This document shows, in pieces, positions 4,521 to 57,496 of a stretch of 64,000 nt of DNA (position 1 is its first letter; every line of letters starts with the position of its first letter). The stretch is from positions 1,872,501 to 1,936,500 of the forward strand of contig NC_092581.1 in NCBI RefSeq assembly GCF_037975245.1, read 5' to 3'. This DNA comes from Apostichopus japonicus (lineage: Eukaryota > Echinodermata > Holothuroidea > Aspidochirotida > Stichopodidae). Both the position numbers and the translations under genes were made by a program. The notes under the pieces were generated by a model. The model did not search any database, had not been told where the DNA came from, and saw nothing but the letters and a program-made list of their open reading frames with translations.

Positions 4521-7242
4521 ATAATATAATAATAGGAATGTGTTTGTTTGTATATATTGGTACTATACATATGATGGGATTCTTTGCTGGTAGAGAGATG
4601 ATACGGGCCAGCCAGTGCATCTCATGATAAATTTTTATCTCATAACCTTGCATTTTCCAATTCACTGCAGTTAGGATTAGTGCAATAATCTGTGTGCACA
4701 CACTCCTCATCCTAGAAGATACATACTGCTGAGCCATTCCACCAAAAAAACATAAAAACAAACTGCAGCAGCTGCAAAATCTCTTGCAACAAGGCTGATA
4801 TGGAGATGAAAAAACAACAGAGATTATTTCTCAGCAGATTAGCACAGTGCAATACCCACTGTGAGAAATGTGTATGGAATACAAAATATTGCATCCTATA
4901 TACAGTATATATGGCCAGAAATGTGTATGGAATACAAAATATTGCATCCAATAGACAGTATATGGCCAAAAATGTGTATGGAATACAAAATATTGCATCC
5001 TATATACAGTATATGGCCAGAAATGTGTATGGAATACAAAATATTGCATCCTATATACAGTATATGGCCAGAAATTTGTATGGAGTACAAAATATTTCAT
5101 CCTATACACAGTACATGGCCAGAAATGTGTATGGAGTACAAAATATTGCATGCTATACACAGTATATGGCCAGTAATGTGTATGGAGTACAAAATATTGC
5201 ATGCTATACACAGTACATGGCCAGAAATGTGTATGGAGTACAAAATATTGCATCCTATTCACACAGTACATGGCACTGTTGGCGCATATGATGCATATCC
5301 CACAGAAGTACAACTTTTCGAATCAGTGCCTTTAATTTTTGATAGTTGATTTCTACAACCTGATGGCATAGCCAGAGGTGGTGATGCCGGGGGAGATCTG
5401 CCTCGCACGCAAGCATGTTAAGTAGATCGTAAAATATTGGCAAGATTTAGAGTTGCACTAACGCAAATGTAGTTAAAAAATTATAGCACAATTTTGCATT
5501 TAGGCTCCTTATTGAAACCTTATCCTTACTGAAAGAAACACAATTTTCTTTTTAAATTAAAATAAACTTGAAACTTTTTTTTTTTGCACCATATACTCCC
5601 TGCAGTCTGACTTACTCGCAACCTCTTGTTGGTTCAACACAAAATGAGCTAAAGGCTTAATATTTTACCTGTCAATCAATTGCATTCTGTTTTTATAATT
5701 CACCAAATATCCACCCAAAAAAATTAAGGTTAATTATGGGAAAAAAAGGGGGCATTATATTATTAGCACTTGTGTGATCACAAAAATGTCCACAAGTATA
5801 CTGTAATAATTTTTTTACTTAAATGTAGAGAGAATTTTAGTCTTCATTACATACTGTATGTCATATAGTTTCAGAAATAAAAACCAATGGAAAACTTATA
5901 CTGTTGGTATGTTTTGTAATACAATTTTGGTTTCACGACCAAAATAGCATCTTTAAGATGTGCTAGTTCCCAATCTCAAATCATGAGCCATTGGGTTCAG
6001 TTTAAACACAACTTTTAGGCAATAACCCAAATAAAATATGCAACTTTAAAGGAACATCTGAGGAATGTGTTATAATGCTATTTTAGTTTCAAGATGTTCA
6101 TACACCTTTAAGCTATACTAGATCTCATTCTAAAATCATGAGTGATTGGGTTCAGTTTAAACTGATAGTTGGAAATAGCATCCCATCCCATCCCACCATC
6201 CATGCATCCCATCGTTCCATCCATTTACCTACCTATCCACCAACCCACCTATCCATCCACCCACCCTCTTTTCAAAGGAATATGTGGTGGGCTCATGAGT
6301 AAAGTCTAGAAATGGGTTTTAGTTCCTGCATGTTCTCACAGTATATATTTACATTCTTTTCCATGTAACTCACATATGGTGAAAACTGACTTTTACATTA
6401 AAATGACAGGATGGACGAGTGAATGGACAAACTCCTAAACGATACTTCAGATTTTATTAAACCAAAAAGTGTCATTCATTTAGGCTATACCGGAAAGGTC
6501 TCTGACGGCAATTAGTGTACTTCATTGTTCATACTTACACCTCACGCGAACAGGATGCGACCACATATAGTCTCATAAAGTGCTAATTGTGACATGCACT
6601 TAGCTCATGCACACAGTAAATCCAATTACAGCATTATAATTGCAAAAGTCACCTACATGCATCCACCCCACGCATGACGGTCGTAGCAGATACAGCTATC
6701 GAGCGCAAGCACGTAGCATCGAGTCGGAATATTTACCATGTATTCTAACTACTGCTCCAGATGCATTATAAACCATAGCCACAGCACAAACAGTACACAC
6801 TCTTTACTGCTATATTCCCAACTAGCAGGGGGGTTAGCCGGTTTGTAAAGTCACACATATTCTATTGATTATCAGACTAAATTGAGAATCTCCTAAATTG
6901 CATTCGAGCTTCGCTCTGCCGATGCGGGGCTGTATATATGATGTATACAGAGCTCTCGCTTCGCGATCGACTCGGATTACGTTTAGGCAAAACAAGATCT
7001 CTCTCCGTAAAAAGGTTCGTTTTTCCTGCCGATGTTGTAAATTAAGGAAACAAGCATTGCCAGACTGATAGCGCTCGTTTGGCTGTGTGTCGTCAGTCTC
7101 TACGGCAAAAGTGATGAACATGACTCAACCTCTTACTCATTATACAGCCAAAGTGTAGTAAGCACTGTTAAACCAATTACCTGCTTTTACCGACATCACA
7201 AGCCTGATATACTGCTGCAGTACATATGTGTCAACACCACGT

Positions 7243-13300: not shown

Positions 13301-16300
13301 TCAATGTAGCCCTTGGACTCTTCTCTCTCCATCAAGGTTGCCGATATTAACTTGAAGATACTTTTAATGTGAAGGAAGGTATTAATAGAAATAAAAAAAT
13401 GAAAAAAAAACTTTACAAAAAATCTGTTATGCATGCTCAATCGGTACACAGATGATGGAGAATATCGAACCCCGGATATAAATGCTGGTATTATTAATAA
13501 AGATAAATTAATAACAAATAAAATAAGCTTAAAGCTACTGTATAGCAAAGCAAAGTAGATTTCAATGCCCAAGGCTGTGAATATTGTCTGATTCTGTTTC
13601 CCTTTTGTTTTCAAAGGGTCGGCCCTCATCAATTTTTTCTTCTTCTTTATACTCACTGGATAAATTATACAGAATATAAAAAGTTGTCATTAGATGCTAG
13701 TATTAATTAGCTAGCAATTCCAAAATAGGTTTTAGAGAGTGTGTTAGTTTGATCAATTGTGGTCCTTATTCTGAGAAATGCTTGGCAGGTTTGGAAAATT
13801 GCCAACCAACTCAGACCAGTTGCTTCCAAGTAGCATAAATAAACTGGATAACAGTTTGTAATATGTGTGCATCCAGAGAATAGGGTTCAACAAGCCTTTC
13901 TTAAGAAAACCCTCCCTAGCTCCTTCCCCCAAAATCAGCATCACACATCTCAATCCACTCTCTTCATTTAAATAATACTGCTCTCTAGATTATTCTATCT
14001 ATTTCCCTTGCCAGCAATAATCCTAAATTTCGACTCAATTCACTTGAATTATTCAACAAAATGACCATTTCTTCACACCATTTCTAAAACACATCAATTT
14101 GTTCAACCATTTTCTTTTTCTCAAAACGACTTTTTCGCCACCTTCGCAAAGATTTTTTGCCTGACCAGTTGCAGTGAGCAATCCGGCAGTACTCCAATTT
14201 CCCAGCAACCGAGTACTCTCAAAATTTAAGCTACTGTACCTTACAATGGCCTCTGTGTTAAAAAAAAAAAGAAGATATCCAGTGAATTATTCACAAAACT
14301 AAAGACTGAAACTTCTGGCATAGAAATCCTACCCCACCCCTAGAGAATACAAAGCCCTTCCAGAAATGGAAGAAAAAAAGCCAAAAATATAAAATAAATA
14401 AAAATAGCACCCATATGATGATATGAACTTGATATTCTTGAATGTCAACACATTACTCAGATCACAAGTTACCTTTTCATGTCACAGAATGTACGAATAA
14501 ATGTATATCTTTGTTTAGTGGGGTTATTTCCAATGTTCTACTGGCTGACCGAGTGATTGTCCGCAATCGTGGATGAAGTTGACAAAATTGATAGAAAAGT
14601 TTGGAAAAATGTAAAAAAAAAAAAAAAAATTTTAAAGAAAAATATTTATGGGTTTCATAGCATGGTTATTTCTGGTTTCCTTTCACAGTTTGTCCTTAAT
14701 TTCGAAATTATATCTGGCAAATTATTGACCCAATGCAGGCTTGGGAAACATGCAACCAAATTATATCCAGGGAATCATTTATCCAGTACAGAACCTCATA
14801 GTGCTATAGACAAAATAATCATGTTGCTGTTCAAGTGTAAAGATGTATATCAGTTTTCTACGTGAACAGGAACTATAGTATTCAGTGACAGAAAAACTTC
14901 AGAGCATTTGAAAAGTGTTACACAAAATTTGAGTTCCAAATTATGCCCTGGTGATATCTATAGATAACACAAGTGTTAATATGGGGATTATCTGAGGTTC
15001 TGAAGTGCTGACTGGCTAATTTGAAGATTGTTACACCAAATTTTAAATGTGTTTCACCTCTTAGCGTCTAGTCACAGAAAAATACAGGTACCTTTTTTTT
15101 ATGCAGTTGGCAAAGTTAATGTCAGTGAAATCCACTACCATTTAGCTGGTAGATGACTCCAACTTAGAGGCATACTATATATGTTTCCATAAGTTACCAA
15201 AGTTTATGATGCATTTTAAATTGTAGTGCAAAATAACATTGTTGGCATTTCAACATTTCGGTACTGTAAGCTCCTTTAAAGCAGCAGCATTCAGTGCTAT
15301 GTTTGATTCAGTATCAGGTATCACATCAACGCATTTTGTATTCAGTTTCAGGAATCACATCATCAATGCATTTTGTATTCAGTTTCAGGAATCACATCAC
15401 CAACGCATTCATTGCTATGTTGGATTCAGTTTCAGGAATTACATCATCGATGCATTTTGTATTCAGTTTTCAGAAATCACATCATCAACAGATTTTGTAT
15501 TCAGTTTCAGGAATCACATCATCAATGCATTTTGTACTCAGTTTCAGGAATCACATAATCAACCTGTTTTGTATTCAGTTTCAGGAATCACATCATCAAC
15601 GCATTTTGTATTCAGTTTTCAGGAATTTCATCATCAATGCATTTTGTATTCAGCTTCAGGAATCACATCATCAACGCATTGTGTATTCAGTTTCAGAAAT
15701 CACACCATCAACGCACTTTGTATTCAGTTTCAGGAATCACATCATCAACCCATTTTGTATTCAGTTTCAGAAATCACATCATCAACCCATTTTGTATTCA
15801 GTTTCAGGAATCACATCACCAACGCATTTTGTATTCAGTTTCAGGAATCACATCACCAACGCATTTTGTATTCAGTTTCAGGAATCACATCATCAACCCA
15901 TTTTGCATTCAGTTTCTGGAATCAAATCATCCAAGCATTCAGTGTTACCCTGGATTCAGTTTTAGGAATCACATCATCAAAGATCGAAGCATATTTAGCA
16001 CAACACAGCTCTTAAATTTCAAGTAAACTTTAAACTTGTTAAGTCAACTATGATCGCAAAAAAGAGGGATGCTCCTTTAAAGTATCTACAAGATTCATGA
16101 TCAGAGACCTAAGTACTGTCCATTACAGTGACTTACCGAACAGGAATATATAAGCTAAGCTACTAAGTTTTACCCAAACTGCTGGAAATGCTAATGTTTT
16201 CTCCTTTTGAAAGGTCATAATGAAGCTAAATTAAGTTTAATGTAAACAATTAATTACCACTCCTTATTACAATATTCAATTAAACTAATTAAGCTACAGT

Positions 16301-37563: not shown

Positions 37564-39201
37564 CTACCATTCCAATTGTCTTTCATAGTCTACACAATAT
37601 TAAGGAAACAACCACAGTGGGCTTGAATCTATTGTAGACTTACCACATAGACAGTCAAATTTAATATGTGATCTTTGTGGAATAAATCTCATAATGTTGG
37701 TGCCTGTGTTCCTGTGTACTTAGAAAAAGCTGATTATTATTTTATTCAGGTAACTTTCTTTGCCCAGTTACATCTATTACTAGGTAATGTCTGTTGCTAA
37801 AATAAATATGAAATTATTGGTACTCTCTTAAATTTCTATTTTGCTTCTTTGTAATCAAAATATGATATCTATAATATTCATTTAATTTTCATTCTTTTTT
37901 GTTGATTATTGAATTTTGTTAATTGTTCTACTCACTACAAAGTTTAAACTTGCAATGAAAATGACATTTACTGTTTGTGAGATTGTGAAAATAAAGTCTT
38001 GATGTAATAAATGGCAAAATTTTCACCTCTTTTCTTAGCTAAATTTGGCTATGATGATGATGTCACTCACTGTACTGTAGCCAGAGAGATTAATTAACAG
38101 CGCGATAAAAGTTTAAAGATTTACACCTCCCTCAGTCATAATGTATCGCCTACCGATGCTGAAATTAACTATAATTGCAGCTCTGCCAACCCCCTTATCA
38201 CAAGTTTATGACATGATTACATGAAAGTTATGATATCCTGACAGCGTTACTCGCCGTACCGTATGAGTCTCGTATCAGATGTTGACACAGACTATCTTCA
38301 CAAGTCGGTATCCTAATATGAGAAAGGTTGGCATGGTGACATAAATTACGGAGAGAAAAGTCACTTCTGGTTTCGCACATGATCTTGTTGACAGGATGTG
38401 ATAAAAATAGATCACATTTAGACTAGGGATTCACAGATGACTTCAATCCTTAATGCCGAAAATGTGAATCTCACCAACCTGAAATGGACAGTATTGCAAT
38501 GACATTCTCAGCGCAAAAATTACTCGCAACCAATATGGGCTGTCAGTTTACGATAAACACAGAGGCAGGTCCAGGTGAGGACCCTTGGGGAGGGAGAGTG
38601 TATCCCCCCATGGTGGGGGCATTGAAACTAGCTACGAAGTTTTTTATCACAAGATTCGTAGTTGACATTTATGTAGCATTCTTTTTCAACTTGCACCTAT
38701 TACATTCTTTTGCACTGCCATTTTCGTAGGAAATTCACAGTAATTCCCTTATCGATGACCCTTCCCTCCTGACTCCTCGCCCTTTTACAAATAATCCTAG
38801 ATCTGTTACTGAAACAGACTGAAAGTTATGGTTCTGGATGACAGTCCTGTAATTGTCACTACCATCCATGACACACTGGTGCTTTAAGACATTCAACTCG
38901 GAAACTCAATGCCAGGTCACATCCTCTGCAGACGATGCTACGATTAGAAAACTGTTTAAGTTTAAATGTACTTCTGGAAATACTGCAATTTCCTGTCACA
39001 TTTTTGTTGAATATCAAAACCGAAGTTTGGGACAACGTTTAGTGAACCTTGGATAAGTTCTCACAGATATGCTATTTGTGCAACTCACTAAAATATGTTT
39101 GATCAACCTCTTGACATTTTAAATGTATCATTCAAAATTCATACAGAAGATGTCACTGTTTAATATACACAGTACAAATATCTTAAACACTGTCCAAGAG
39201 A

Positions 39202-39772
39202 AAAGGTTTGGTGTAGAGAGAGGTGTGGTGTAGAGAATGATATGGGGTAGAGTATGGTATGGTGTAGAGAAAGGTATGGTGTGGTGTAGAGAAAGGTATG
39301 GTGTGGTGTAAAGAAAGGTGTGGTGTAGAGATAGGTATGGTGTAGAGAATGGTATGGTATGGTGTAGAGAATGGTATGGTGTAGAGAATGGTATGGTGTA
39401 GAGAATGGTATGGTGTAGAGAAAGGTGTGGTGTAGAGAAAGGTGTGGTGTAGAGAATGATATGGGGTAGAGTATGGTATGGTGTAGAGAAAGGTATGGTG
39501 TGGTGTAGAGAAAGATATGGTGTAAAGAAAGGTGTGGTGTAGAGATAGGTATGGTGTAGAGAATGGTATGGTATGGTGTAGAGAATGGTATGGTGTAGAG
39601 AAAGGTGTGGTGTAGAGAATGATATGGGGTAGAGTATGGTATGGTGTAGAGAAAGGTATGGTGTGGTGTAGAGAAAGGTATGGTGTAAAGAAAGGTGTGG
39701 TGTAGAGATAGGTATGGTGTAGAGAATGGTATGGTATGGTGTAGAGAAAGGTATGGTGTAGAGAATGGTGTT
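39202..39772. repeat. Purine-rich minisatellite with higher-order structure
   Basis: Variants of GGTATGGTGTAGAGAA (roughly 16-17 bp, with a shorter GGTGT variant) repeat for about 570 bp. Variant units recur in the same order: ATGATATGGGGTAGAGTATG occurs at 39237, 39456 and 39619, giving higher-order blocks spaced about 219 and 163 bp. The array has no stop in one minus-strand frame, producing a 214-codon open frame of HHT/FSTP-type repeats that is not a gene: it has no start context, splice sites or family similarity. Confidence 0.92.
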
Positions 39773-42749: not shown

Positions 42750-45700
42750 CTGCAATCAAAATGAAAAGGCCAAGATGAACACAATGGATGGATTTCTTTC
42801 TCTCATGTGTATTTACACTTTTCATTTGTGGAGAGAAATATAATATTTCAAAATACTGTTTATCGATCCAAAAAATCAATTTGCTGTCCATACAAGAATG
42901 ACAAGTTCTTTCACGGTTCTTGTGTAGTTTGCAGTGTGGGGTCGAGTTGAGTCGGTTGCAATTTGCTATGGTGTCAGAAGTGGGATATGCCACGTACTAT
43001 TATCCATTCCTTTCTCATGCATACCTTTATACACAAGGACATGTTACTTACCCACTCTCCACATCAATGGGATTCTGCCTTAACTGAGCAACATGTTCTT
43101 CTCGGATTAAATGACGATTAGCCTCGAACAGAGTTGGACAACCAAGAATTTTCTTCTGCAGTATTCTTAGACTTCTCTCTGTTTCTCCTCTTGATTGGTT
43201 CTAAATAAAAAAAAAATGGTGTTTCCATATTTGAAATACATGATGTTTAGGCCTAATGAGGGAAGCAGGGGGGGGGGGGTGGTCAGACCCATGGTGCCTT
43301 CATTATGGGGCCTGTGGAAATACAAAATAAAGAACTTAATCTGATATCCATACTACACTTAGAATAAATGAAGACTTCAAAAGTTGGGTTTGTTGACAAA
43401 ATGATTGGCCAAAATATGGCTACTTGAAGAAAAGGATGGGGAGGGGGGGAGGGGGGGTGGTGAAGGTTTCCTAATTTTACCTGATCAAACCTCTCCTGGA
43501 GATCTTGGAATGTGACAATGGCAGCAGCTAGGTCGTCCCTGTCCGCATGGTCGACGGGGGTGCAATGTTCTTGGTGGATTAACAATCTCGCATAATCTTT
43601 GATCCGTACAGAAATCGCCAGAAACAGTTCTTGGAGGGTAAACATTCTGGTCTCGGAGGTCTGGTTGTGTCTCTTCAGAAATGACCGGAACGAAGGCTCT
43701 TGCTCTCGACACTGGGTGACAAAAAAATAAATATATTACTTCGTAACATGCTTTTTTGGAGGGAAGAGCGATTTTGTTGGGGAAAGAATGTTTTGTAGTA
43801 GTAACTTCATACCAAGATGTTCATGATAAAGATGGCTAAAACATATTTATGCAATTTTGATTATCAGTTTACCAGCTGAATCAACTTTTGTTCCAGTTCT
43901 TAAATGCAAATTGGATCAGCTATGAAAGTATTTAAACAAGGATTAAGATTTATCTCCCTATTTGTGACAGAACCGTGTCTGTTTCAGTCCATAATTAACC
44001 CATATTGTTTAAGGATATTTGATCAATATGATGTATGTTTCTTGACAAGCTGTGACAACATATTTCATTGTACCCAATACATATTTATATAGGTTTCAAC
44101 ATTTACCCCCAGAGAGTTGGGACAAGTTTTTATATACTGTACTTTCCATGTCATGCTCCAAAGCACTTGTACTAACAGTTTAAGCAGTATGAATATTAAA
44201 AGATTGGAGCTGTTCATGCTGTCAATACGAGTGCTTTGAAGCAAGATATGAGAGGGACAGTCGAGTTTTAGAGTGGTACTACCATATTTCTTTGGTTGAA
44301 AAGTGGGACACTGGGTCCTGGAGAAAGAATTTAATTTAAAGATTATAAAACCGGCCACAAAGTGGTGGCACATTTACAGATTTATACACTTTAGATCAGT
44401 GTTATATTTTTCTTTATTTTTCATATAAACGTTTTCATTTTTACCAGAAAAGCAAAACATCAACATCACAAAACGGTTACATATAGTGAGTAGATGGGTG
44501 CTACATATTGTGAAAAAAGAGGTATTTTAAATGCTACAAAGACCTTTAGAAAAATTGGGACAGTTTTAAATTGCTTGCAGGACAATATATTTTCATTGCA
44601 CAATAGGGACAATCCTGATTAATCAGATTTTGCCTCAACTGACTGTCGTCTCTCGCGGAAAACTGTCACAGGAAATTTTGTCATTTGTCATCTGTATCGT
44701 TTCATCCGGGTTAAAAATATTGAATTGAGAATTTCAGACTTTTCCCTACCTTATCTATAGTAGCTAATATGATGGGGTAGTTATTGTGGAAGTTTGTGTA
44801 GGCCTTCAGTTTACTCTGCAGTTTGATGAAACAATCTCCGACGCACTGCTGAGAATTCCATTCGGCCAGCCTGGTTTCCAGTTCATCCAAAAACGATCTA
44901 AGGTGATCGATAAAGTAAAGTAAAAATGTTAAATTATGTTACCTTTTATTTATCTTTACTAACCTTCCCTGGTTAAGTTACTCCAGTTTGGCTGAGTCGG
45001 GGTACCCTGTGGAAGCAATGGTGTTTTATACGTTCCTTATTCTTACCTGTGAATACTTCTCAGAACATTTGCATCAGCGAACATGAGATCAATATTTGGC
45101 AGGCTGGTTATGGCTTTATTTGAATGCAGAGCAGATTTGAGCTTCTCCCTAAAGACATGGTTGATGATGTCCAGGACTTCTACGAAATCTCTCTCAGAGG
45201 ACACAATCTGCTTGAAACTTGCTCTACGATCCATTGGTTGTAGGAGCTCTTGATTCTATGAACCCAAAAAACAGGAGAAGAGAGAAAAAAACATTCATTC
45301 ATTGAGTCAGAGTTAAACAATAGTTTCTTTCCAAGCTACCGACAATGTAAGGAATAAAGCTTTATCAGATCCGTGTCTGAAATTAAGTTCATGAGAAACA
45401 AATGGAAAGAAAATGGCAGTGGAAAATGTATAAAGAGTTATGCAAAATTGGCAAAATGCCTGTTCAGTCATGCAGTGTGTCGCCGGGCTTAAGAGAAACG
45501 AAAAGTAAAGGTAAAAATATTTACCTTTTCATTGCTCTCTGTGTCTGATTTTGTCCATTTCGGCCTCCCAAGATTCTGCGTCTTCCTTGACCCTGTGTCA
45601 TCCAGCTTTGATTGCTCCGTCAAGGAGAATTTCATCATCTTCTCGGATTGACCATAGTCTGATGCTAGATCTAGGTCGTCCACAAGGCTTTCATCCTCAA

Positions 45701-48700
45701 TTTCTTCTGCAATACTCTTTGTTTCAGAAATATTTGTTTCCTATGAAGAAGAGTCACCAAGTGAGATGAGAAGATCATGGTAAAGAAAGATAAAGGAATA
45801 AATAATTAAATACTTCAAAAACGTGAAGACCACCAAAAATATGCATTTCTTGATTTAATGATCAATAAATATTGCAGGGAATTGAAAGCACATCTATCAG
45901 AAACACTCATAATTCTTGTCTTTTTGGTTTTGTTTTAATGTATTTTTCATTTTTAATCCCAATGGTCCTTCTGTTTCACTAACAATTGTCTTCTTTTCAT
46001 TACTTTTCAACTTAACACATCTGCCTCTACAGAAAGAACACTTTTCTTGGACTGAAACACCTGGATTTCCAACATTTATCCTATAGGTCTTTTTGGTTCT
46101 TATTCAGCACTGCGTGTAATGTATTAACATTTTTAGATTAAATAGTCGCTTAAAAATTGAAGCATGACAGTTGATATAGTCCTATGATGTCACATTCTGC
46201 AATATTGACTTTGAAAGCCATAAATCGAACAAATATTAAAGGACAGTTAAGGTTACATTTAATCCATTAGACCAGGTTGGTAGGGTGGGTGTTCAAGCCT
46301 AAAGCTTTAAGAGCCCACACACCCGATTAGTGCAAGATGGGTACGATTGAAAAAATTTGCAGGCCGCATTGTTGCCTGTGGGCACCTACTGAGAACCCTG
46401 TTGTACTTGCCTACAGAATCAAACATTAATAAGCCAATTATGCAAAAAAAAATCAAGTAATCAATAACACAAAATGACAAGTAGATTAATTCCATCCTCA
46501 ATCTGTTTAATATTTTAATAATAATAATAATATTTGACTTTTATATAGTGCTTTACACCAGCGATAGGTCTCAAAGCGCTTTACAGAGGTTATATTACCC
46601 CTGGTCAATGATAACCTGTCCCAGAGACAATCCCTCCAGTCGGCAGCAGTTATATACTGCGCCCAATGACAAGTTACCTCACAGGTACCCATTAAACCCC
46701 TGGGTGGAGGGAGGCAAGTGAGATAAAGCATCTTGCCCAAGGACACAACGTAATGAACTAGGCATGAATAGAACCAACAATCCTTGGATCACAAGTCCGA
46801 CGCCTTAGCCAATTGGCCACCACGCTCTCAAAGATGTCTTTAAAGATGGTTTGCACCAAACACAGTCACATTTAATTATCTCAGAAAATGTACCTTATAT
46901 ATCTGTAAATGTATAACTGTAACCCTTTGAAAATGATTAGAGTTCTGTACCTCTGGTTCTTCAGCTTTCTGCCAAAGGTTGGATGAAGAGGGACCTCCAA
47001 GCTCGGACATGGAGAGAGGTTTGGTGTTACTTCCTTCACCGACACCCTTAGCTGTCATCATTCCCGTCCCAGTCATACTGGCAAGATACTCTGTAACAAA
47101 CTGCACAGGTTCCACAGTCTGGCAAAGAAGATAACAAAACAATTCGGACGAATTTCTAAACTGTCTCCTTTGACATTTGTGAATGAATGTTTCACTAAAA
47201 CTAGTAAGTTTTATTCCATTCAATTCAGTTTGTCTTCTCTTATTTTTTTCTTTATTGTACATGTACATAAAATCATCAGTTTTAAAATTACAACAAGTAG
47301 AGATAATGGGGCAATAGAAAAACAAAGTTGATTGATAATACCTAGTGAGTAATACTGTTAATGTGGTCTGCAATGACAAAATGGCCTAATGAATCATGCA
47401 AACATTGGGAATATTTGGTCTAAACAGTTAGCTAAACAAAGTATTTAACCTACAGATTATCTGTAGAGAACTCCAATAACTACCAACCAAATAATACACA
47501 TTTGAAGTTCAAATAATATCATAGCATAGCATAGCAACCAACTCCAACTGTGGCCTATTTACTGAGAAAATGAATGGAATATTGACATTTTGTCATAAAT
47601 AGTTGCTAAGCAACCCTTTCTGATAGCAGACTATTTGTGAAAAATTGTAAGGGTTCTGTAGCAACAAAGAAATGTCAACAAACAGAAAGAGTTATAATTT
47701 ACTTCTGCAGCTGTTGCTTGGCAACCATACTGAGACTACAGACTATTCGTTGTTGCTAAGCAATCAGAGATTCAATTATACTTCCTACCTCTTTTTCTTC
47801 CTCATTCAAAGCCTCAACAGCCTTCTTCAAAGCAGGTATCAATCTGTCTGATATGTCCTGGTCCTTCTGGTCCTGTAGGGATTCAAGGACAGCTTCACCT
47901 GGAAAAGAGCCAAAAAAGAAAGAAGCAGTTAAACAAATGGAAAAAAAGTCATCAACTGAATGGACTAAATTTGTTTCATCATGTTGATCTCAATTATTAC
48001 ATTTGACTTGACTCGATTTGATCTTATTCCATTAGTTATTTATTTTCATTAATTTAAGTATCGCTATGGTAACAGGTAATGTCAACCATATATTTATGGT
48101 CATTTATGCAAGTAGGTGCATTTCATATTTTGGAAAATGGATCACGTTTTGATCACGATAATGTCACCAGACTACGGTAACATTTTTTCTAATTTCTTAA
48201 TATTCTTCCACAAAAAATAAAAATAAATTATTTAAAATAAAGGATAAACTACCTGTTACCCTAGTCAATCTCGAATTCATTTTGTCCTTGTAAAACCTCT
48301 CCATGTTTTCCCGACAGACTCTAATAGACTCTAAAGATCGCAACGCCTCTGCTTGCCAAAGTCTCAGTTTCTTCTCATCAAAGTAAAGTAGAGGAGGAAG
48401 AACGTCTTTCTCCGGGTTTGATGACCAGACACCGCTGCAGACTACAAAAAAAATAGGAAAATATATTCCTTTCGAAAGTTAAACCAAGATATGTTAACCT
48501 TTGGAGTTTATGACTAACATTATTAATATATCATGTGATTTTGGGGGAGTTAAGTATATGTTTCTATTTGTTTCCATGTACCTTCCTTTCAAAATGGACA
48601 ATACTAGCACAAAATTGTGGTAAATTCATCACAAAATGTAACTCGAGGTAGTGGTGGTTTATCTCTGTTTATCCTACGAACTGTTGAATTTCCCGAGATT

Positions 48701-51700
48701 TACCATGCATAAACGGATCATTTCCGATCACATCAGGAGATGACACCGTCATCCCAGTAAGTCTTGCCAACGACGTCTCCAACGCTGTACCACGTTCTGC
48801 AGATTTTGAAAGGAAAAGAGAGATAAAAAAGACATGACTTTGTTCACTTTCACAAGTTCACTACATAAGTCCCTACATAAGTAAATGAAAAACAAAACTC
48901 TGAATGGGAATTTTTTGTGAAATTTGTAACCGAGACATCATTGGATAAAATCCTGTTCCAGCAAAAATACTTCTTAAAACTTCCTTCTATATTTCCCCCC
49001 ATTTTTTCCCTGTTTTCTTCTTTTTTTTTTGGTGGTAGTACATGCTGAGCTGCTTTAAACAACTGAAAGCCACAAATGTGAGAGCACTTTGGTTTTTTTA
49101 TACTTTTAAATTATCTTCTGGCAATTCTTTAAAAGAACTTTTATGGAAGGTAATCCAATCAACGTGGGAAAATGACCAATTTGATTCCCTTCCACCCCCA
49201 TCCATTCCCGGATATTAAATAACTTTAAATAATGCAAATTGCAATGACAGTGCCTCAAGCTCTTTAAATTAATAAATGGAAATTGCCTCAATTTCAGAGC
49301 AGGAATAAGTTCAGCCACTTAAACTTAACCATTGCATAAGTAGCATCTCATATTTGTCCATACTTCATATTATACAACTCTGCAATGTTAAGCTTCCTGT
49401 GGTTATACATTTTGTCATCATATATCTTTGAGGCCTTTTTTTTGTTCTGTAAAAATAAAACCTTTTTTTTCTTTTGTGATATGTAAATGTTAACCCACAC
49501 ATGAAAGAAAAAAAACAATGCCAAATTTCCAAAGAAAAAAGTTTAACAATTTGATTGTAGAAAGCATATGATATGTCATTTTTATAAAAAACTGGGAGAC
49601 TCAATCCAATTGGTTTTTGCTATTTTGGTGTCCCTGATATGCTATCCATCAGTTATGAAACATTTTCTATATAATTAAAATACGTTTTCTTTTGTAAAGA
49701 AAGACACCAATATTTCAAACAAAACATATACTGCAAATATTTATAAATATTAAATCATCAACCTTCTTTGTGCATTGTGAAATGTAGAGAGTGCAAATAT
49801 ACAAAGAGTGGAGTAGCCTAATTATGAAATGTCTCGAAGAAGATCATTAATGCAAAATAATCTTAATTTTGAATATTATTTATATCTGGAAATTGCCGAC
49901 AGCTCTTTGAAGAAAGTGATCAATATTATAAACTGAACAACATGGATGTATCAATTAAAAAAGGGACTTAATTAGAAATTCAGTTTTATTTGTATAAATA
50001 TAAGAATATTTGTTATTATGCTTCACCCTGACAAGTTACCTTAAAAAAATTTATCTTCATGCTATTTTGTGAAGGAAAACAATAAACATCTTTAAATTTT
50101 TGCAAGCGTCTTACATGATCACATAAATTAATAGAATGATTGAGATATGTTTACTTGGATCAAGAGTGGTATACAACTCTTATTTTCTAAATTTACTATT
50201 TTATTCCTCCTCAGAATTTTAACCAATCACAAGTTTTTTGTGAGACACTAACTGTTATTCTCAGACAAAGACTTGAGTTACTTGCCCAAAAGTTGTAGTA
50301 AATGAAAATCAATTTGCAATTTTTTTCAATTGTCTAAAAACTGTTGAAGACACTGCATAAAATTTGAGAAATAAAGTGTCAAGTCACTTGAAAAAGCTTT
50401 AAGCATCTCCTATCAACAATTATCATCTTCAACATATGAAACAAATTTCTTTCTGTACTACTTGGTCTGTTGCAAAAGACTTTAAGCAAGTCTTACAACA
50501 AGACCCTCCCTCCTCATGTCTTTACCTGTTGCAGCAAGAGGAGCAAATATTTCCAGATGAGGGCCTTCCTTCCTCGAAACCATCATTGTCGATATGACCT
50601 CAAAGAAATGCTTTAACTCAGGTTTCTCCAGACTATCGTTGGACAAGACGACATTTTTGACGAGATGAATTTCATCTAAGCCTCTGGTAATTATTGCAAT
50701 AGACCTTGAAGACACAAAATAGAAAAGGAAAGTGTAAACAAAATTTCATTTCACAGAATTGCAAAAGAGGTTTTTCTGATGTCCGGAGGAAACTTTTGAG
50801 TTGAAAAACATCAAAATGGAAGCAATAATAAGCAAGAATTGTTTTTCTTTTTCTAATATATTTGCACAAGTGAAAACAACACTCTTACACTACTTAAGCA
50901 GCTCGTAATTTGTGCAATGTATAATTTTCTAGCCATCGGAAAAACTTCAAAACGAACATAACAGTACATTTTAGACCAAGACGACTTCAAGTCTCACATC
51001 ATCCTTCGAGGCACGTAAGTACTCTCAGTATGAACAGTATGAATATCATGTTTCCATGAGATAAAAGGTTAGGAACTGTTCATACTGCAACATACCCTAA
51101 AGAGTATTACCACAGCATTTGAAAATTTGTGCCAAACTGGCTAACAGAACCAGTTTGGTTGCATTGACATCAAGATATCTTAATTCTTGAGATAGACTTT
51201 CTCATTTTTCCTTTATCAAAATACATAACACTAGTTAGGCAAAAAATTTCTATGCACTTTCACAGCAGGATGTGACTAGCCTAGCCTACTCTGCATATAA
51301 GATACAGGAGCTGGAGTTATTATTTGTCATTTTTATTCTATCATAAACCTTACTTTGCCTGAATTCCAATCATTGCACTCTCTAACTGTTCCTGTAGGGA
51401 TTCCACAGTCGTACTCTCGTAGTCATAACACAGGCATAGGATGCCAGGTTTAACCGATGCATAAAGAATCTGGAAAAAATAAAAAAAGCTCGCATTGAAA
51501 ACATCGCAAACACAGAAACAGACCACCTCATCTTCCTCGACGTGAGGTTTTCAGACATGTCTTCTTGTTGCCGGCAAAGAGTGCAGCAAACTGTTTGCTT
51601 CGTCATCCACTGAGACCAGTGGACAGTCAGGACCTCTGACCGAAGTGTAGAATATGTACATGTGGTGATCCATGCCTGGTGTGTATCCAATTAATTCCAG

Positions 51701-54700
51701 CTGCTCAGTAGCAAGAGAAGTGATTTTTGGTTACGACAAAATGGCTACAGAATCCATAGCATCCACAACTGATGCACCCACAAGCCCCGGTCCAACAGAG
51801 CCCATAGAAACTTACCATAAGGGATGCTGAAGAGGGCATATATGACCCTTGGTCCGAGGTCACTGGTTTGAATCATGTTCACGCCAAACAATTTCTTAAC
51901 TCTTTTCATTTAGCATTATTAATGATAATGAATATTTCAGCTGTTAAATTAATATGCTGTTTATAGATGCAGGGTTTCTTGTTAACCAATGAGAATGCTG
52001 CAGGGGATATTTCTCCTCTAAATGTTGTCTCTGGAGATAACTTGCATCAGAGAACGATTGCAAATAGTTTCTTGCTACTTTCACCACCCACAGGCCTCCC
52101 TACACCCCCACCCCTCTTCATGGTGCTATTTTATGCTAGGATATCAGAAAACAAAAGAAACAAAGTGGTGGCTTTTGACACAGCTCTTCATCGTTCCCTA
52201 AAATGAAATATCGATCATTAAAAATAAATAAAGGAGTTTCTGTATTAATTTTGTCCCTTGGTAACAGTAATTGTAGGAGCACTTACTTCGTAGGCAGGAA
52301 CATTAGATGCAAGGATGACTAATCTGTTATCTCCAGGGGTAGACCCTCCTCCACGTGACTGAGGTCGGGACTGTTCAAAGGCAGAGGAGACACCTAGGGT
52401 GTAGTCACCTCCACCCCCTGAGAGATCTTTCCTGAAAAACAGAGGAAAATTGAAGATTAAAATAAAAAGAAAAAAAGCATACATTTAATGACGACAGAAA
52501 CAAAGAGTTGAATAAGTGCATTCAATTCCCCTCTTCTTGTTTTTTTTCATTAGTATCCGCATATTTATTACTCTCAAATCAGATACTAAATTTAGGTGGA
52601 TTTACTCCGGTGTAAGTTTGTTTTCTTTTTGATTTTCATAACTGTAGTTGTGTAACCCTTTTTCATTTTTTTTTTACATTTACAATATTATTAAAAAAAA
52701 AATTCTTTCTTAAATTTCAACTTAATGTTAACTTTAAAGACAACTATCTATATAAACTGAAAATTGTGTTTTAAAATTTATGCAACTATAGTAGGAAAAC
52801 AAAGCTTGAATTGTTTAGATCAATTATTTTTCCCATAATTCCATTCTACGATACCTTCTATAGATGGATCTATTTCGTTGGGGAGGCAGCCATTTCTGGT
52901 CCATGGTGTTACTTCTTACTAGGAATCCTTCTTCCTCCATAGCATCTGAGAGCTTTTTGTGATTATCTTCAAGGCTATGCTCACCTTCCTTGAATAAGAA
53001 TTCACAAAGACATAAAAAGTTGTTAATAATTACCTCCAAATATCAGGGAGTTGAAAAATTCACTGAGAGTTTGCCAAATACTTTCCAGGCTATTTTGACC
53101 ATCCGAAATTATGACCAGATATTGATTAGTGATAATAAATTCAGTTCAAAATCATGTTCAAACTTAATTTGATTTTTCTCATATTTCAAGTTGTACAGAA
53201 AATATTCATAAAAGTATGGAAACACAGAACACTAGAAAATAGGCAATTTATACAACTTGAGTAAAAATAAGAAAAACTGTATAATGTATAAGTAAAAGTA
53301 TTTTACTGTGTTTCTTGTTATGACTAGATGTGAACAACACGATGTTACTGCAACGGCCGTAACACTCCAATGAAAGGTTAAGTTCAGTGACAGACTAAAG
53401 AGACTATAATGAAAAGGCAGTTGGAAGCATATTGTAACAGTACTTATTAACTGATTGATGAAAACAATTAATTTTCAGTCATATTACCGTGGTGGATCTG
53501 TGATGAGACTTCCTTCCGGTGGACTTGAGTCCATATTCAAAGCTTCTTTCCGACGGTTCGGTAAATGATCTAAGATGTCCCCTGATTCTCGTTGGATCAA
53601 CCTTTGGGTTAGCCGATGCGATTAGAGAGTTGTGGCCCTGAACGAGATCGGCTGGCTTAGGATCAGGATCAAGCCATGGTGGTCGCTCCCTCCAAATCAC
53701 TTGGTAAAAGAAAAGCAGAGAGTTCCAGATGTAAACTTAATTCACGACAAGCCTTTTCAATTCATTTCCTGTTATAAATGTCACCTTTTCATCACATTCT
53801 CTTACTGTTCAGTCATCAATGTCAGTTTAATCTTCTTTAATGGACCCATAACCTTCATCAATTGAGGGGGGGGGGGGGGGTTATCTCGACCAATTTGAGT
53901 AGCCACGGTAACTCAATATTTATTTTGAGAAGTAACGTTCAGATTTCGAAAATCATTTGAAGCACCGGTTGTGGCAGAGCTGTAATACAGCAAACTAAAC
54001 AATGAAGCTTCTGTTCAGTCGTAGTTCATGAAGAGAATTATAAACATAAATACCCTCCCAAAGATGAGAAATAGAATAATTTTTTAACACTCACTGGTTG
54101 CCTGTTTGTCCGAGTTCCTTTGTTCCAGCGCTCTTCTCCTCCGGGCTTTCTCTTCCTCTGTCATGTATCTGCTGCCATCACTTTGACGTCCATATCGTTC
54201 TGTCTGTTTATGGAGAAATCGATACATATCACACGGAATTATAATAAGTATTCGTACGTTCTTTGTTATTTGTACTATTGTAAATTGTATACTAGTCCAC
54301 TGCCATATATGCATTTAATTACGCTACTTAAAGGTAAATCATTTATTCGATGCAGCATAAACGGGGTGGGAGATGCACTCTTCAACAGCATGGGACAGAT
54401 ACTTTCCACACATTGTACATATGAACAGACTCGGCAGTGTAACTTTTTTTATTTTTTGGGTCTTGCCATTTGGTTGTCCGAACAGCAAGTTGGTCGTTTG
54501 AAAGAATGTACAAAACAAAACAAAGAATGATCAATATGGACACTGTAGGAGCAATGTGTAAGTTTGGTGAAAATAACACCAGCTTTGGGTTAAGAAGTAA
54601 CTTCTCCTTTGGGTGGATCATGGACCTACCACTGGTTTTGTTTATTTCAGTATCAAAGTGATGGAGGGTGATACCAATTTATCATTTTACCTATTTGAGG

Positions 54701-57496
54701 ACATTTTGTAAATTCCAACCTGAAATTTGATGTTAACAACTAGTCATCCCTAAGACAACCTCCAAAGCTGATGTTGGTCGTCCAAATAAAGATTTGGTCA
54801 TCTCGGACGACCAGGGGGCCATAAAAATTTGCCTTGATGATGCACAAAAGGATTTCAATCACGGAAATAACCGATAAATGCCTTGGAATCTTAACTAAAC
54901 TCAAGTAAATAAATCAGCAAAGATCAGTGCTGCTATCAATGAATTGCAAGCACCTTCAGCCAGGTGAAATGACTCAACTCCTGTCGAACTAAAAAAGACA
55001 CCCGTTAAAATAGGACCCTACCTTGTCAGTAGGGTGGGCAACATCTAGTGACTGCAAACATTTGATGTAGTGTAACTTCCAAGATCCGTACTCGTTTGGT
55101 TTGGGGGTGTACGGTAGAAACCATCCCTGACGTATACATTTGGGCATCCATAGGGTGTCCTAATAAAATCAAAAGAATAAACAAAACATGCAACAAGCAA
55201 AACACTAACAAGCAGAAAAAATTGGACAAAATGAAATGTGTAAAATAGATCTTACAAAAGTTCTGGCCAAAATTTATTGATTGGGTAGAAATATTGTTGG
55301 ATCATAAAGGGAGGGGATAGGGTGAAGAGTAGGAGTGAGTGGAGAGATGGGTGGGGGGGGGGATGGATGGTCATTTTACCTGTTCTGCTAGATACTTCCA
55401 GTGCCAGCATACCATGCCACCCCTGCTAAGACTTCTAGGGTCCAGAAATGAAAAGATATATAGACTCAAGAAGCGAGGCAAGTAATTTGTGAAGTCAGCG
55501 TGAGTCACCGGAACGTTGTCGTTGAAGAACTTGTGCAAGAAGTTGATCTGATTCCGTTTGCAGTGACCGAGGATGTAACGTAGGAAACGTTTCCTTTGGA
55601 TGTCCGTCCAGAGGTCAAACTGTTTAGAAATAGAAAGTTAGAAACAAGACATTATTTAAGTCAAAAAGGTTCATCGTAGCAGCCCAGGTACATGTGTCCA
55701 TCTTGTAATAGAAATGCTGCAAGGCAGAACTATTTCTACAGTGGCTTAAAGGGAGTGAAGACTCGCGCACAAAGAAACGTCTGATGCCGGTAATCTGACC
55801 TAGTTTCAAATGAGGTGTAACAGAAGTGTTAGATACCACCATCGATCCCAGAAAATACACACACAGCTTGCTACCGTCAGTAATTAGACACTAGTGTACA
55901 GTCAATACATGCAGCTACAGTGAATACCCACAACACAGTATACATAGCAGCGATGGACATCTCAGGTCTAGATAAAAGGTAACAAGGTATCACATTTCAT
56001 TACTGTCTGCATTTTGTAGCGACAAGAACAAAAATTCTCTTGCAAGCAACGAAAAATTAACTTTTGCAGACGGCGGCACACGGTTTGGGGTGAGTCTTCA
56101 ATTCCTTTAAATATGAAGAGAAGCTACAGTAAATTGTTCATCTCCATCTAGATTGCATCATCCACTTCAAGTAAGGAGGAGTCTGCCATGGAAGGGGGAG
56201 ACCCACCAGTGTTTTTTTTCCTGTCACTGACAAATTCAAAGTTCAGTTTTGAATATTTGAATATATTGCATGACTGCACTGGAAAATTAAATCCTCTTAT
56301 CCTACCCCAAGGAATGATACGATTTGAATATGAAATATCTTCACTTTGCTCCTATGGGTTTAATATAGTAGTTAATATTAATTACTAATTTATCTAACTA
56401 ATCAAAGTATGCTATACTTTCAGTGAAAGACATACAGCTGTATATATCATACAATAACAGGTACATGATATGCATTACTCACCCAATGTCCTATTAAATC
56501 TCTCCTTTCAACGTACAGCTGCAGAAATAAAAATGTGTAAAATGGAAGCACTTTAAAACATGTACGTTCAATAACTAAATGAATGTTTATGGCACAAAAA
56601 CTAAACCAGTTTGTTTAAAACTTTTCAAACAATTCATAAGATTTTTACACAAAAGCCTTATTGCATCTGTGTAGATATTTGGCCGTATTGCAAAGGATTT
56701 TGCTATTGGATAACAGATACTAGATCATTAAGTGCAGCAAGCTTCAAACAGTTTCCTTTGTTTCTGTTTTGCTTTCTCAATTATCGGCAGACTTCTTGTA
56801 CGATTTATTCTGGTGATAAAGAGGCAAATAATTGGCTAACACTGGATTAATTAAACTATCCTCACTCAAATGGGACCCATAGTAAGTTAAAATAATCCTG
56901 GCCACGAACGGCTGCTCACTTTCTGCGCCCACATAATCCTTGGGCCCCAGCCTTATGACTCTGCTGTGTTCAATGAGTAAACATTTGTAGTGTTAGCTCA
57001 GTGGTTAACGCCGGTGCCTTTCAATCATAAGGTCCCCGGTTCGAGTCACTCCCAGATTAATATATGTCGTCCAGTTACAGAGTTGTTGACAATTAACAAT
57101 TCATAATCATGGACGTTAAATATGAATGTAAGAGACTGACTTCGGTCAGCTTGCAGCTTTGATAGGCCAATGAGGCTTCTTTGCGAGTTCCTGCTCACAG
57201 GGGGATCTAATATACATACATTTGTAAAACATGTATATCAAAACACAGAATTCTGTATAAAATGTATAATTTACCTGTTCATTGCTTGGCTTGTGCAATA
57301 TTGGTGTCCATGTGCTATATTTGGTCTGTAGCTTTGTGGTCTGGAACGGTACCTGTGAACTTGACTGTAAAGGAGTCACATGTGCTGTTTTCTTCCCCTT
57401 TAGAGAAGTGACAGGCTTGACTTTACCGACATGACCATTCGCCGAACCGTCGAGATTGGAGGGCAGAGATCTTCGTTCCTTAAGCTGACTGCTCAT
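42018..57496 (-). CDS. ECT2L: ECT2L-type F-box / RhoGEF protein, complete coding sequence in 21 exons
   Basis: ECT2L (epithelial cell transforming 2-like, an F-box protein with a Dbl-homology RhoGEF module) is a poorly characterised vertebrate protein of about 900 residues; this copy is 1115. Coding exons, in transcript order: 57496-57275, 56518-56483, 55619-55380, 55159-55022, 54203-54095, 53699-53488, 52988-52855, 52431-52287, 51469-51354, 50704-50526, 48796-48704, 48441-48253, 47898-47789, 47118-46951, 45740-45525, 45255-45047, 44897-44750, 43711-43481, 43200-43052, 42749-42577, 42148-42018. All 21 join in phase, all introns are GT-AG, and the total is a multiple of three ending in TAG. 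Order of parts: disordered N-terminus with TWTPILHKPSNEQ (about 62-74), F-box (about 130-175), basic linker, DUF4347-like domain (about 398-545), Dpy-30-like motif (about 620-653), DH (about 775-985), PH (about 1000-1115). The ATG (A at -3) follows acceptor TTTTGCAG|AG, so an upstream non-coding exon is expected. Confidence 0.93.
43052..45255 (-). CDS. ECT2L: ECT2L exons 16-19, Dbl-homology (RhoGEF) domain
   Basis: Exons 45255-45047, 44897-44750, 43711-43481 and 43200-43052. Conserved region 1 is clear: SSERDFVEVLDIINHVFREK with the key Glu. The middle helices carry IDLMFADANVLRSIH and SFLDELETRLAEW. Conserved region 3 sits in exon 18, TLQELFLAISVRIKDYARLL, followed by HCTPVDHADRDDL; relative to the canonical L.LPVQRI.RY.LLL it is degenerate. 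DH domains load GTP on Rho-family GTPases. Confidence 0.85.
44159..44238. repeat. Palindromic hairpin element, copy 1
   Basis: Outer arms CAAAGCACTTGTA and TACGAGTGCTTTG pair with one mismatch; an inner pair CAGTATGAA / TTCATGCTG nests within. It lies in an ECT2L intron and resembles the element at 51015-51110, suggesting a short fold-back element family. Confidence 0.65.
46515..46826 (-). mobile_element. tRNA-derived SINE with (ATT)n tail
   Basis: Read on the minus strand: a tRNA-like head with A-box-like TGGCCAATTGGCTAAGGC and B-box-like GGTTCTATTCATGCC, a body with CTTGGGCAAGATGCTTTATC and GTAAAGCGCTTTGAG, and a terminal GTAAAGCACTATATAAAAGTC followed by ATT repeats. The layout (pol III promoter, body, LINE-like 3' end, microsatellite tail) is that of SINEs spread through aquatic deuterostomes. 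It sits in ECT2L intron 14 in the sense orientation. Confidence 0.82.
46951..47898 (-). CDS. ECT2L: ECT2L exons 13-14, Dpy-30-like motif
   Basis: Exons 47898-47789 and 47118-46951. Residues about 620-653 read ISDRLIPALKKAVEALNEEE followed by EPVQFVTEYL. The layout hydrophobic-PAL-x5-L, acidic linker, P-V-x-F-(V/L)-x-x-Y-L is that of Dpy-30/RII-like dimerisation motifs, which form four-helix docks for amphipathic helices in chromatin and ciliary complexes. The intron falls inside the motif. The following segment is Ser/Gly-rich and probably disordered. Confidence 0.5.
48704..52431 (-). CDS. ECT2L: ECT2L exons 8-11, DUF4347-like (caspase/CHAT-like) pseudo-domain
   Basis: Exons 52431-52287, 51469-51354, 50704-50526 and 48796-48704 together encode a domain beginning RLVILASNVPAYE and ending LARLTGMTVSSPD. 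Order and spacing follow DUF4347, a domain known mainly from large bacterial surface proteins: a first strand LVFVDxxVPDY, a GxxVxxLDxxxDGLxQI segment (here GILCLCYDYESTTVESL), a His-Gly strand (here IAIITRG), an YGC strand (here EIFAPLAAT) and a final LAxLTGxxVAAS. The His and Cys that would form a clan-CD-type dyad are replaced (SHG to TRG, YGC to FAP), so an enzymatic role is unlikely. Identification rests on motif order only. Confidence 0.6.
51015..51110. repeat. Palindromic hairpin element, copy 2
   Basis: Inner arms CAGTATGAACAG (51026-51037) and CTGTTCATACTG (51076-51087) are perfect complements; outer arms GTAAGTACTCT and AGAGTATTAC pair imperfectly. Located in an ECT2L intron, related to 44159-44238. 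Confidence 0.7.
54430..54585. repeat. Dispersed repeat fragment, related to 28575-28795
   Basis: GACACTGTAGGAGCAATGTG and AAGTTTGGTGAAAATAACAC closely match the tomosyn intron 1 repeat at 28699-28746, and a preceding segment with GTCCGAACAG also corresponds. Family unidentified. Confidence 0.6.
55022..55159 (-). CDS. ECT2L: ECT2L exon 4, end of F-box region
   Basis: 46 codons (residues 167-212): DTLWMPKCIRQGWFLPYTPK, then EYGSWKLHYIKCLQSLD. LWMPKC(I/L)R.GW and the W..HY motif are shared with FBXO16 and vertebrate ECT2L, which fixes the gene assignment. Confidence 0.95.
55380..55619 (-). CDS. ECT2L: ECT2L exon 3, F-box core
   Basis: 80 codons (residues 87-166), phase 0 at both ends. It starts FDLWTDIQRKRFL and contains LPRFLSLYIFSFLDPRSL and VCWHWKYLAEQ, the F-box helices that bind SKP1 in SCF ubiquitin ligases. 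Similarity to FBXO16 and ECT2L is high. Confidence 0.95.
56483..56518 (-). CDS. ECT2L: ECT2L coding exon 2, 12-codon micro-exon
   Basis: 36 nt between TCTGCAG and GTGAGT encode LYVERRDLIGHW. It links NEQ of exon 1 to FDLWTD of exon 3, exactly as the family order NEQ(L)...ERxxLxxxWFDxWTDxQRxxFL requires. It is too short for ORF callers and easily missed. Confidence 0.9.
56990..57150 (+). mobile_element. tRNA-like SINE head
   Basis: A-box-like TTAGCTCAGTGGTTAACGCC (56993-57012) and B-box-like GGTTCGAGTCA (57038-57048) at tRNA spacing, with an imperfect anticodon arm (CCTT/AAGG around an 8-nt loop). No acceptor stem pairs, so it is not a functional tRNA; the sequence after it (AATTCATAATCATGGACGTT and on) probably belongs to a SINE body. 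Its 3' limit is uncertain. Confidence 0.6.

What the first reader, a model, noticed from the sequence alone, without database searches (positions are those of the whole stretch)
48704..52431. Caspase/CHAT-like DUF4347-type pseudo-domain inside a RhoGEF
Exons 8-11 of ECT2L encode a block whose motif order follows DUF4347, a domain I know mainly from bacterial surface proteins: LVILASNVPAYE, GILCLCYDYESTTVESL, IAIITRG, EIFAPLAAT, LARLTGMTVSS. At the places where that family has SHG and YGC (a possible clan-CD-like His/Cys dyad) this protein has TRG and FAP. If right, an F-box/RhoGEF carries a degenerate member of a bacterial-type domain, possibly acquired by transfer and kept as a binding module.
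Basis: partly seen in the sequence, partly recalled or inferred. Interest (0 to 1): 0.75.

Follow-up and report, generated by a model that had tools for sequence, protein, structure and literature searches.

The report
Dead caspase-like domain in animal ECT2L
An animal gene for a probable cilia protein (ECT2L, an F-box protein with a RhoGEF domain) carries a domain related to bacterial protease-like DUF4347 domains that has lost both expected catalytic residues, so it most likely works by binding rather than cutting.

Summary
In ECT2L (minus strand, exon 8 spliced to exon 9) residues 401-536 match Pfam DUF4347 (31.9 bits, cut-off 24.6). A profile of 64 DUF4347 domains from bacterial-type contigs, no animal in it, scores it 25.5 bits (shuffles at most 8.6). 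The bacterial domain, predicted at pLDDT 95, matches a solved DUF4347 effector (Z 14.4), SAVED-CHAT (10.3), Craspase and caspases (8.0); 18 of 64 members weakly match Peptidase_C80. So DUF4347 looks caspase/CHAT-like, and ECT2L belongs to it by sequence. Where 60 of 62 profile-selected bacterial rows keep His and Cys, this ECT2L has TRG and FAP, the ECT2L chain of PDB 11xu SDG and F-V-P: a pseudo-enzyme. 11xu also holds SKP1; zebrafish ect2l knockdown shortens motile cilia (PMC4199137, passages). Most likely the domain is a non-catalytic binding or scaffold module between F-box and RhoGEF; this is inferred. Transfer from bacteria could not be tested. Pfam already recognises the domain (11xu fragment 65.7 bits), so membership is not new; the searches I ran showed no paper describing it.

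The parts
52287..52431 (-). ECT2L exon 8: linker and first strand of the DUF4347 domain (LVILASNVPAYE); domain starts at 52322
   Evidence: AG/GT junctions; Pfam start at residue 401
51354..51469 (-). ECT2L exon 9: ILYASVKPGILCLCYDYESTTVESLQEQLESAMIGIQAK
   Evidence: phase-0 junction to exon 8; contiguous in PDB 11xu_A1
50526..50704 (-). ECT2L exon 10: covers both catalytic-equivalent positions
50680..50688 (-). TRG codons (residues 457-459), where bacterial DUF4347 has SHG (His position)
   Evidence: profile alignment; coordinates computed
50539..50547 (-). FAP codons (residues 504-506), where bacterial DUF4347 has YGC (Cys position, absent here)
   Evidence: profile alignment; coordinates computed
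48704..48796 (-). ECT2L exon 11: last helix and strand of the matched domain (ERGTALETSLARLTGMTVSSPDVIGN); Pfam match ends at 48720
51557..51700 (-). Open phase-0 stretch of 48 codons inside intron 8; judged not part of the main ECT2L reading
   Evidence: weak donor GTCTGA; no Pfam or PDB match alone; absent in 11xu
55022..55619 (-). Exons 3 and 4 with the F-box (residues 132-175, 55484-55380 and 55159-55133)
   Evidence: Pfam F-box-like E 3.7e-9; coordinates
43481..45255 (-). Exons 15-17 with the RhoGEF (DH) domain (residues 728-906, 45213 to 43490)
   Evidence: Pfam RhoGEF E 4e-29; coordinates
43481..57496 (-). ECT2L gene as modelled, exons 1-17, 909 aa; the part after the RhoGEF domain lies further down and was not assembled
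   Evidence: 11xu_A1 match E 3.9e-135

Best explanation
Residues 401-536 of this ECT2L are a degenerate member of DUF4347, a family whose bacterial members are predicted to have the caspase/CHAT/C80-like fold with a His-Gly at the end of one core strand and a Cys after another. ECT2L keeps the family's sequence pattern and LTG helix but has lost both catalytic positions, here and in the 11xu chain, so it should not work as a Cys-His protease. It sits between an F-box, the part that as a rule recruits SKP1, and a RhoGEF domain. The most likely role is a non-catalytic binding or scaffold surface that picks the partner or substrate of a SKP1-ECT2L complex in ciliated cells and places the RhoGEF beside it. 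Shown: family membership by sequence, dyad loss, domain order, presence of SKP1 in the same PDB entry as ECT2L. Predicted: the fold of the bacterial relatives. Inferred: the fold of the ECT2L copy, the binding role, its site in cilia, and any link to Rho signalling.
For: Pfam DUF4347 is the only Pfam hit in that stretch: 34.4 bits for the 285-aa stretch, 31.9 for the 909-aa model. Three bacterial profiles without animal rows give 23.5 to 26.3 bits for the window and 14.3 to 18.6 for 11xu, shuffles at most 8.6; hhalign probability 93.6, E 2.1e-7. The A1 model has pLDDT 95.4; VIA-align gives Tce1 Z 14.4, SAVED-CHAT 10.3, Craspase and caspases 8.0. 18 of 64 members match Peptidase_C80 and 2 match CHAT at E <= 1. 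His and Cys are kept in 60 of 62 profile-selected rows. PMC13323088 (passages) names His186 and Cys240 of Tce1 (PA0256) as a putative protease dyad, and PMC8262886 (passage) says PA0256 is DUF4347. SKP1 is chain 11xu_C1. Zebrafish ect2l knockdown shortens kidney-tubule cilia (PMC4199137, passages). The EG-H---F-PL-A-E-G stretch over the lost Cys is shared by the two ECT2Ls.
Against: The bacterial profile did not list 11xu among PDB sequences at E <= 10, under HMMER's filters, so the link for that sequence is weak without Pfam's own model. The ECT2L fold was not predicted. The domain is less conserved between the two ECT2Ls (46 of 134 positions identical) than the F-box (93 of 204) or RhoGEF (83 of 180) parts, as expected either for a changing binding surface or for weak constraint. 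No binding partner of the domain is known to me. A Z of about 8 is within the range the tool calls common; only Tce1 and SAVED-CHAT stand clear, and Foldseek's ranks 2 and 3 are smoothened receptor entries. The zebrafish data concern the whole gene, by knockdown.
Confidence: 0.66

Rival explanations
1. The domain is a DUF4347 pseudo-enzyme whose job is to hold the RhoGEF domain of the same chain in check (autoinhibition or allosteric coupling), not to recruit other proteins.
For: It is the domain that comes before the RhoGEF domain in the chain.
Against: About 190 residues separate it from the DH domain in the model; no structural data on a contact were seen.
Confidence: 0.2
2. The resemblance is convergent: an unrelated alpha/beta domain that happens to score against DUF4347.
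For: Low identity, and the 11xu sequence scores only 14 to 19 bits against the bacterial profiles and was not listed.
Against: Collinear match over about 130 residues with scores far above shuffles, hhalign E 2.1e-7, and Pfam over its cut-off for both ECT2L sequences.
Confidence: 0.06
3. The domain is still an enzyme using other residues.
For: The segment over the lost Cys is shared by the two ECT2L sequences, including a His before the strand (EG-H---F-PL-A-E-G).
Against: Neither the His-Gly nor the Cys is present in either sequence; no other Cys in that segment.
Confidence: 0.05
4. The domain was inherited from an old eukaryotic DUF4347 protein, not gained by animals from bacteria. (A question of origin; it can hold together with the best explanation.)
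For: DUF4347 proteins are named in tables of a green-algal study (PMC10451321) and a Biomphalaria study (PMC6744689), passages only; introns cut the domain three times.
Against: 77 of 200 genomes in one bacterial phylum sample hold the family, so donors abound; no eukaryotic genome other than G000 could be searched.
Confidence: 0.45

Closest known systems
DUF4347 (Pfam PF14252), bacterial proteins
   Same: Profile match over positions 1-130 of 164; same motif order
   Different: Bacterial copies often sit in open frames of over 1,000 codons and keep His and Cys (60 of 62 rows); ECT2L has neither
Tce1 (PA0256), Hcp3-bound T6SS effector, PDB 9qpe chain G
   Same: DUF4347; best fold match of the bacterial model, Z 14.4
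   Different: Putative protease with His186 and Cys240 (PMC13323088, passages); ECT2L lacks the pair
CHAT domains (SAVED-CHAT, Craspase TPR-CHAT)
   Same: Fold of the bacterial DUF4347 model, Z 10.3 and 8.0
   Different: Active proteases of defence systems (recalled); no CHAT match for ECT2L itself in Pfam
Pseudo-caspases such as c-FLIP and the caspase-like part of Raptor (recalled; 3h11, a caspase-8:c-FLIP complex, is listed)
   Same: Caspase-like fold without a working dyad, used for binding (recalled)
   Different: Different family by sequence; not joined to F-box and RhoGEF domains (recalled)
ECT2L in PDB 11xu chain A1 (904 residues, the length of human ECT2L by recall)
   Same: Same gene: E 3.9e-135, same order of F-box, DUF4347 and DH parts
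   Different: SDG and F-V-P at the two positions rather than TRG and FAP; shorter linker before the domain

Membership tests
DUF4347 (PF14252) | Score above Pfam's gathering threshold (24.6 bits) | tested here: met
   34.4 bits (285-aa stretch), 31.9 bits (909-aa model); 24.3 bits if the 48-codon stretch is wrongly included
DUF4347 (PF14252) | Match to a profile made without animal members | tested here: met
   25.5 bits with A1, best shuffle 8.6; hhalign E 2.1e-7. A1 did not list 11xu in PDB at E <= 10
DUF4347 (PF14252) | Full length of the domain, including the C-terminal GGDW strand | tested here: inconclusive
   Window match stops at profile 130 of 164; the 11xu fragment reaches 162
Caspase/CHAT/C80-like cysteine peptidases (clan CD) | Caspase-like alpha/beta sandwich | tested here: inconclusive
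   Supported for the bacterial relative L014; the ECT2L copy itself was not predicted
Caspase/CHAT/C80-like cysteine peptidases (clan CD) | Catalytic His and Cys | tested here: not met
   TRG and FAP in the window, SDG and F-V-P in 11xu; so not filed as an active peptidase of this clan
ECT2L (F-box, DUF4347, RhoGEF) | F-box and RhoGEF flank the domain in one reading frame | tested here: met
   Pfam F-box-like 132-175, RhoGEF 728-906; 11xu_A1 E 3.9e-135
ECT2L (F-box, DUF4347, RhoGEF) | Single transcript joining exons 8 and 9 | not tested
   No transcript data; joined by phase, splice sites and the 11xu protein

The most novel reading that the evidence does not exclude
ECT2L is a ciliary SKP1 complex in which a pseudo-caspase captured from bacterial DUF4347 before the split of this animal and human serves as the substrate-binding head, with its dead catalytic cleft remodelled into a conserved docking site, linking ubiquitin-type recruitment to Rho activation.
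Probability: 0.2. Interest if true: 0.7.

Novelty: new variant of a known kind. Interest (0 to 1): 0.48.

Why it matters
It would place a cilia-linked human gene on the list of proteins that reuse a dead protease fold for binding, and gives a clear test: does the remodelled cleft of ECT2L hold a partner? It also gives the DUF4347 family, named as of unknown function in Pfam, a predicted fold and a probable enzyme class. The domain assignment itself is something Pfam already yields, which limits the surprise.

Tried and rejected
Exon at 51700-51557: first included, then dropped. Second DUF4347 match in the genome (G000 C21, 15.7 bits, E 3.7, one stop inside): rejected as noise; a search with the domain (the version with the 48-codon stretch) found 6 places in this gene plus one hit at E 6.51. 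That search works exon by exon and may miss weak copies. Plasmid tblastn with the ECT2L domain (same version): 4 weak matches, E 2 to 8, none taken as a relative. NCBIfam and PADLOC: none. Viral contigs with the ECT2L domain: no relative. Tree for the origin: two long ECT2L branches, not rootable, bootstrap not settled. 11xu as a tubulin-bearing axoneme entry: the beta-4B tubulin row's first entry is 11yj, not 11xu (60 of 72 rows shown), so no sign of that exact tubulin in it; this rests on the example chain being the lowest code, an assumption. RhoA in 11xu: not seen in the 60 of 148 rows shown. The bacterial profile search of PDB sequences did not list 11xu at E <= 10. Cullin exons of G000 were fetched to look for a cullin in 11xu but not used. 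Papers: DUF4347, 4 papers, passages read in three, PMC12322963 not opened; ECT2L, 80 papers, 30 listed, one opened for passages; ECT2L with cilia or cryo-EM terms (listings), aliases (listing), ECT2L/11XU/9QPE/PA0256 from 2025 (listing), SKP1 in cilia (listing): no description of the domain seen. Families that VIA-align did not list are not excluded.
Full report
What is there. The window is animal DNA by its gene content (G000, 672 Mb in 35 contigs, species not told). On the minus strand, 57496 to 43481, I assembled 17 exons with a continuous frame giving 909 residues; what follows the RhoGEF domain was not assembled. Pfam finds F-box-like (132-175, E 3.7e-9), DUF4347 (401-536, E 1.3e-7, 31.9 bits against a cut-off of 24.6) and RhoGEF (728-906, E 4e-29), with three weaker rows under their cut-offs. 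The best PDB match is 11xu chain A1, named epithelial cell-transforming sequence 2 oncogene-like, 904 residues, E 3.9e-135, collinear over the three parts. The gene is therefore ECT2L. Human ECT2L is 904 residues long by my recall.

Splicing matters. My first assembly included an open stretch of 144 bases at 51700-51557 between exons 8 and 9, with a weak donor. It lowered the Pfam score to 24.3 bits. Without it, exon 8 joins exon 9 in phase 0, the score rises to 34.4 bits, E 2.3e-8, from profile position 1, and 11xu reads straight through the junction. The stretch alone matches nothing in Pfam or PDB. The finding's exons 8-11 agree with the corrected model. I found no second copy of the domain in this genome, within the limits of those searches.

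Is the link to bacterial DUF4347 real? Pfam's model may itself hold animal sequences: the 11xu fragment scores 65.7 bits with it but 14.3 to 18.6 with profiles that I built without animals. So I tested independently. Against A1 the window scores 25.5 bits and 11xu 15.9; 5,000 shuffles of each were searched, 3,869 and 3,753 got a score, the best 8.6 and 7.1. Two other bacterial profiles gave 23.5 and 26.3 bits for the window, shuffles at most 7.3. hhalign gives probability 93.6 and E 2.1e-7. Against this, A1 did not list 11xu among PDB sequences at E <= 10.

What fold is DUF4347? AlphaFold2 on A1 (first row L014) gave pLDDT 95.4 and pTM 0.90, with the conserved His-Gly at the end of one core strand and the Cys right after another. 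Foldseek's first match is 9qpe chain G, the Tce1 effector bound to Hcp3 (E 2.4e-5); ranks 2 and 3 are human smoothened receptor entries (5.8e-4 and 9.0e-4); caspase-3 comes at rank 4 (1.0e-3), and further caspases and legumain follow, mixed with unrelated folds such as flavodoxins and dehydrogenases. VIA-align, which only re-aligns Foldseek's matches, gives Tce1 Z 14.4, SAVED-CHAT 10.3, Craspase, Csx29 and caspases 8.0, legumain 7.6, a C11 protease 7.4. By sequence, 18 of 64 members match Peptidase_C80 at E <= 1 (best 2.5e-4) and 2 match CHAT (best 0.0037), among 33 families with any such match. PMC13323088 (passages only) reports that Tce1 (PA0256) has a His-Cys pair placed as in known cysteine proteases and calls it a putative protease; PMC8262886 (passage) says PA0256 carries DUF4347. 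It is a step of inference for the ECT2L copy, which I did not fold.

The dyad. Because the motif scan selected for HG and YGC, conservation was checked on loci chosen by the Pfam model: 62 rows, 60 of them distinct. 60 of 62 rows keep both His and Cys; the other two are one tandem copy of a single genome seen in two overlapping loci. The genomes had been reached through motif-bearing loci or drawn from the phylum of one, and the loci cut out are mostly the best-scoring ones, so this leans towards intact copies; the weaker loci were not scored for the dyad. ECT2L has TRG for SHG and FA-P for YGC-D; the 11xu chain has SDG and F-V-P. So both positions are lost in both sequences. The stretch across the lost Cys, EG-H---F-PL-A-E-G, is shared by both, which suggests a constrained surface, from two sequences only. 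The whole domain is less conserved (46 of 134, 34%) than the F-box part (93 of 204, 46%) or the RhoGEF part (83 of 180, 46%).

How it may work. SKP1 is chain C1 of 11xu, so one solved entry holds ECT2L and SKP1; its title and contacts were not seen. In a zebrafish screen of 'FIGs' (Foxj1-induced genes, by my recall), ect2l is needed for motile cilia of the ear and KV, and its loss shortens kidney-tubule cilia (PMC4199137, passages). In F-box proteins the part after the F-box usually binds the target (general knowledge). The simplest reading is that the dead domain is the binding or scaffold part of a SKP1-ECT2L complex in ciliated cells, with the RhoGEF placed beside it. Autoinhibition of the RhoGEF is the main rival.

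Origin. 77 of 200 genomes drawn from the phylum of one Massilia (itself among them) carry the family at E <= 0.01. The tree joins the two ECT2Ls (100/99) on a very long branch apart from the 65 other rows; the root is arbitrary. No eukaryotic genome but this one could be searched, and two papers name DUF4347 proteins in tables of green-algal and Biomphalaria work (passages). The domain is interrupted by three introns and shared with 11xu, so if it was transferred, that was long ago. Direction and donor are open.

Novelty. Membership in DUF4347 is something Pfam gives at once, for the 11xu protein too. In the papers held, 4 mention DUF4347 and 80 mention ECT2L (30 listed); I saw none that describes this domain in ECT2L or its dead dyad, with the searches, mostly seen as listings. 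I rate it a new variant of a known kind: a pseudo-enzyme DUF4347 between an F-box and a RhoGEF.

Noticed in passing
window 31686-31549 and 25982-25758, minus strand: Two open stretches read like the start of a tomosyn/STXBP5-type protein (MKRLPFRKVIDNLAG..., VVRHGFPFEPTALAYDPVQNILAIGSKNG); the likeness is recalled, and Pfam gave no significant hit. In human both genes lie on 6q (recalled).
   Followed up: partly
window 39197-39769: Tandem repeat array, period 17/56/73, open in all three minus-strand frames for 195 to 238 codons.
   Followed up: no
window 4864-5274 and 15302-15939: Tandem arrays of 51-base (8 copies, 93% matches) and 37-base (17 copies, 85% matches) units.
   Followed up: no
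ECT2L residues 83-117 (exons 2-3): Sub-threshold match to DUF4508 (18.0 and 19.9 bits, cut-off 27) just before the F-box.
   Followed up: no
L154 and L144 (genome G010), tandem DUF4347 copy: A bacterial DUF4347 copy with Ser at both His and Cys positions near a second DUF4347 match in one 3,990-codon frame: a bacterial pseudo-domain.
   Followed up: partly
G000 C3 28.78-28.85 Mb and C21 17.5-17.8 Mb: Clusters of tubulin genes in this genome (27 matches listed in all, a lower bound).
   Followed up: no
window 51700-51557, minus strand: Phase-0 open stretch of 48 codons in intron 8 that could be a cassette exon; no support found.
   Followed up: partly
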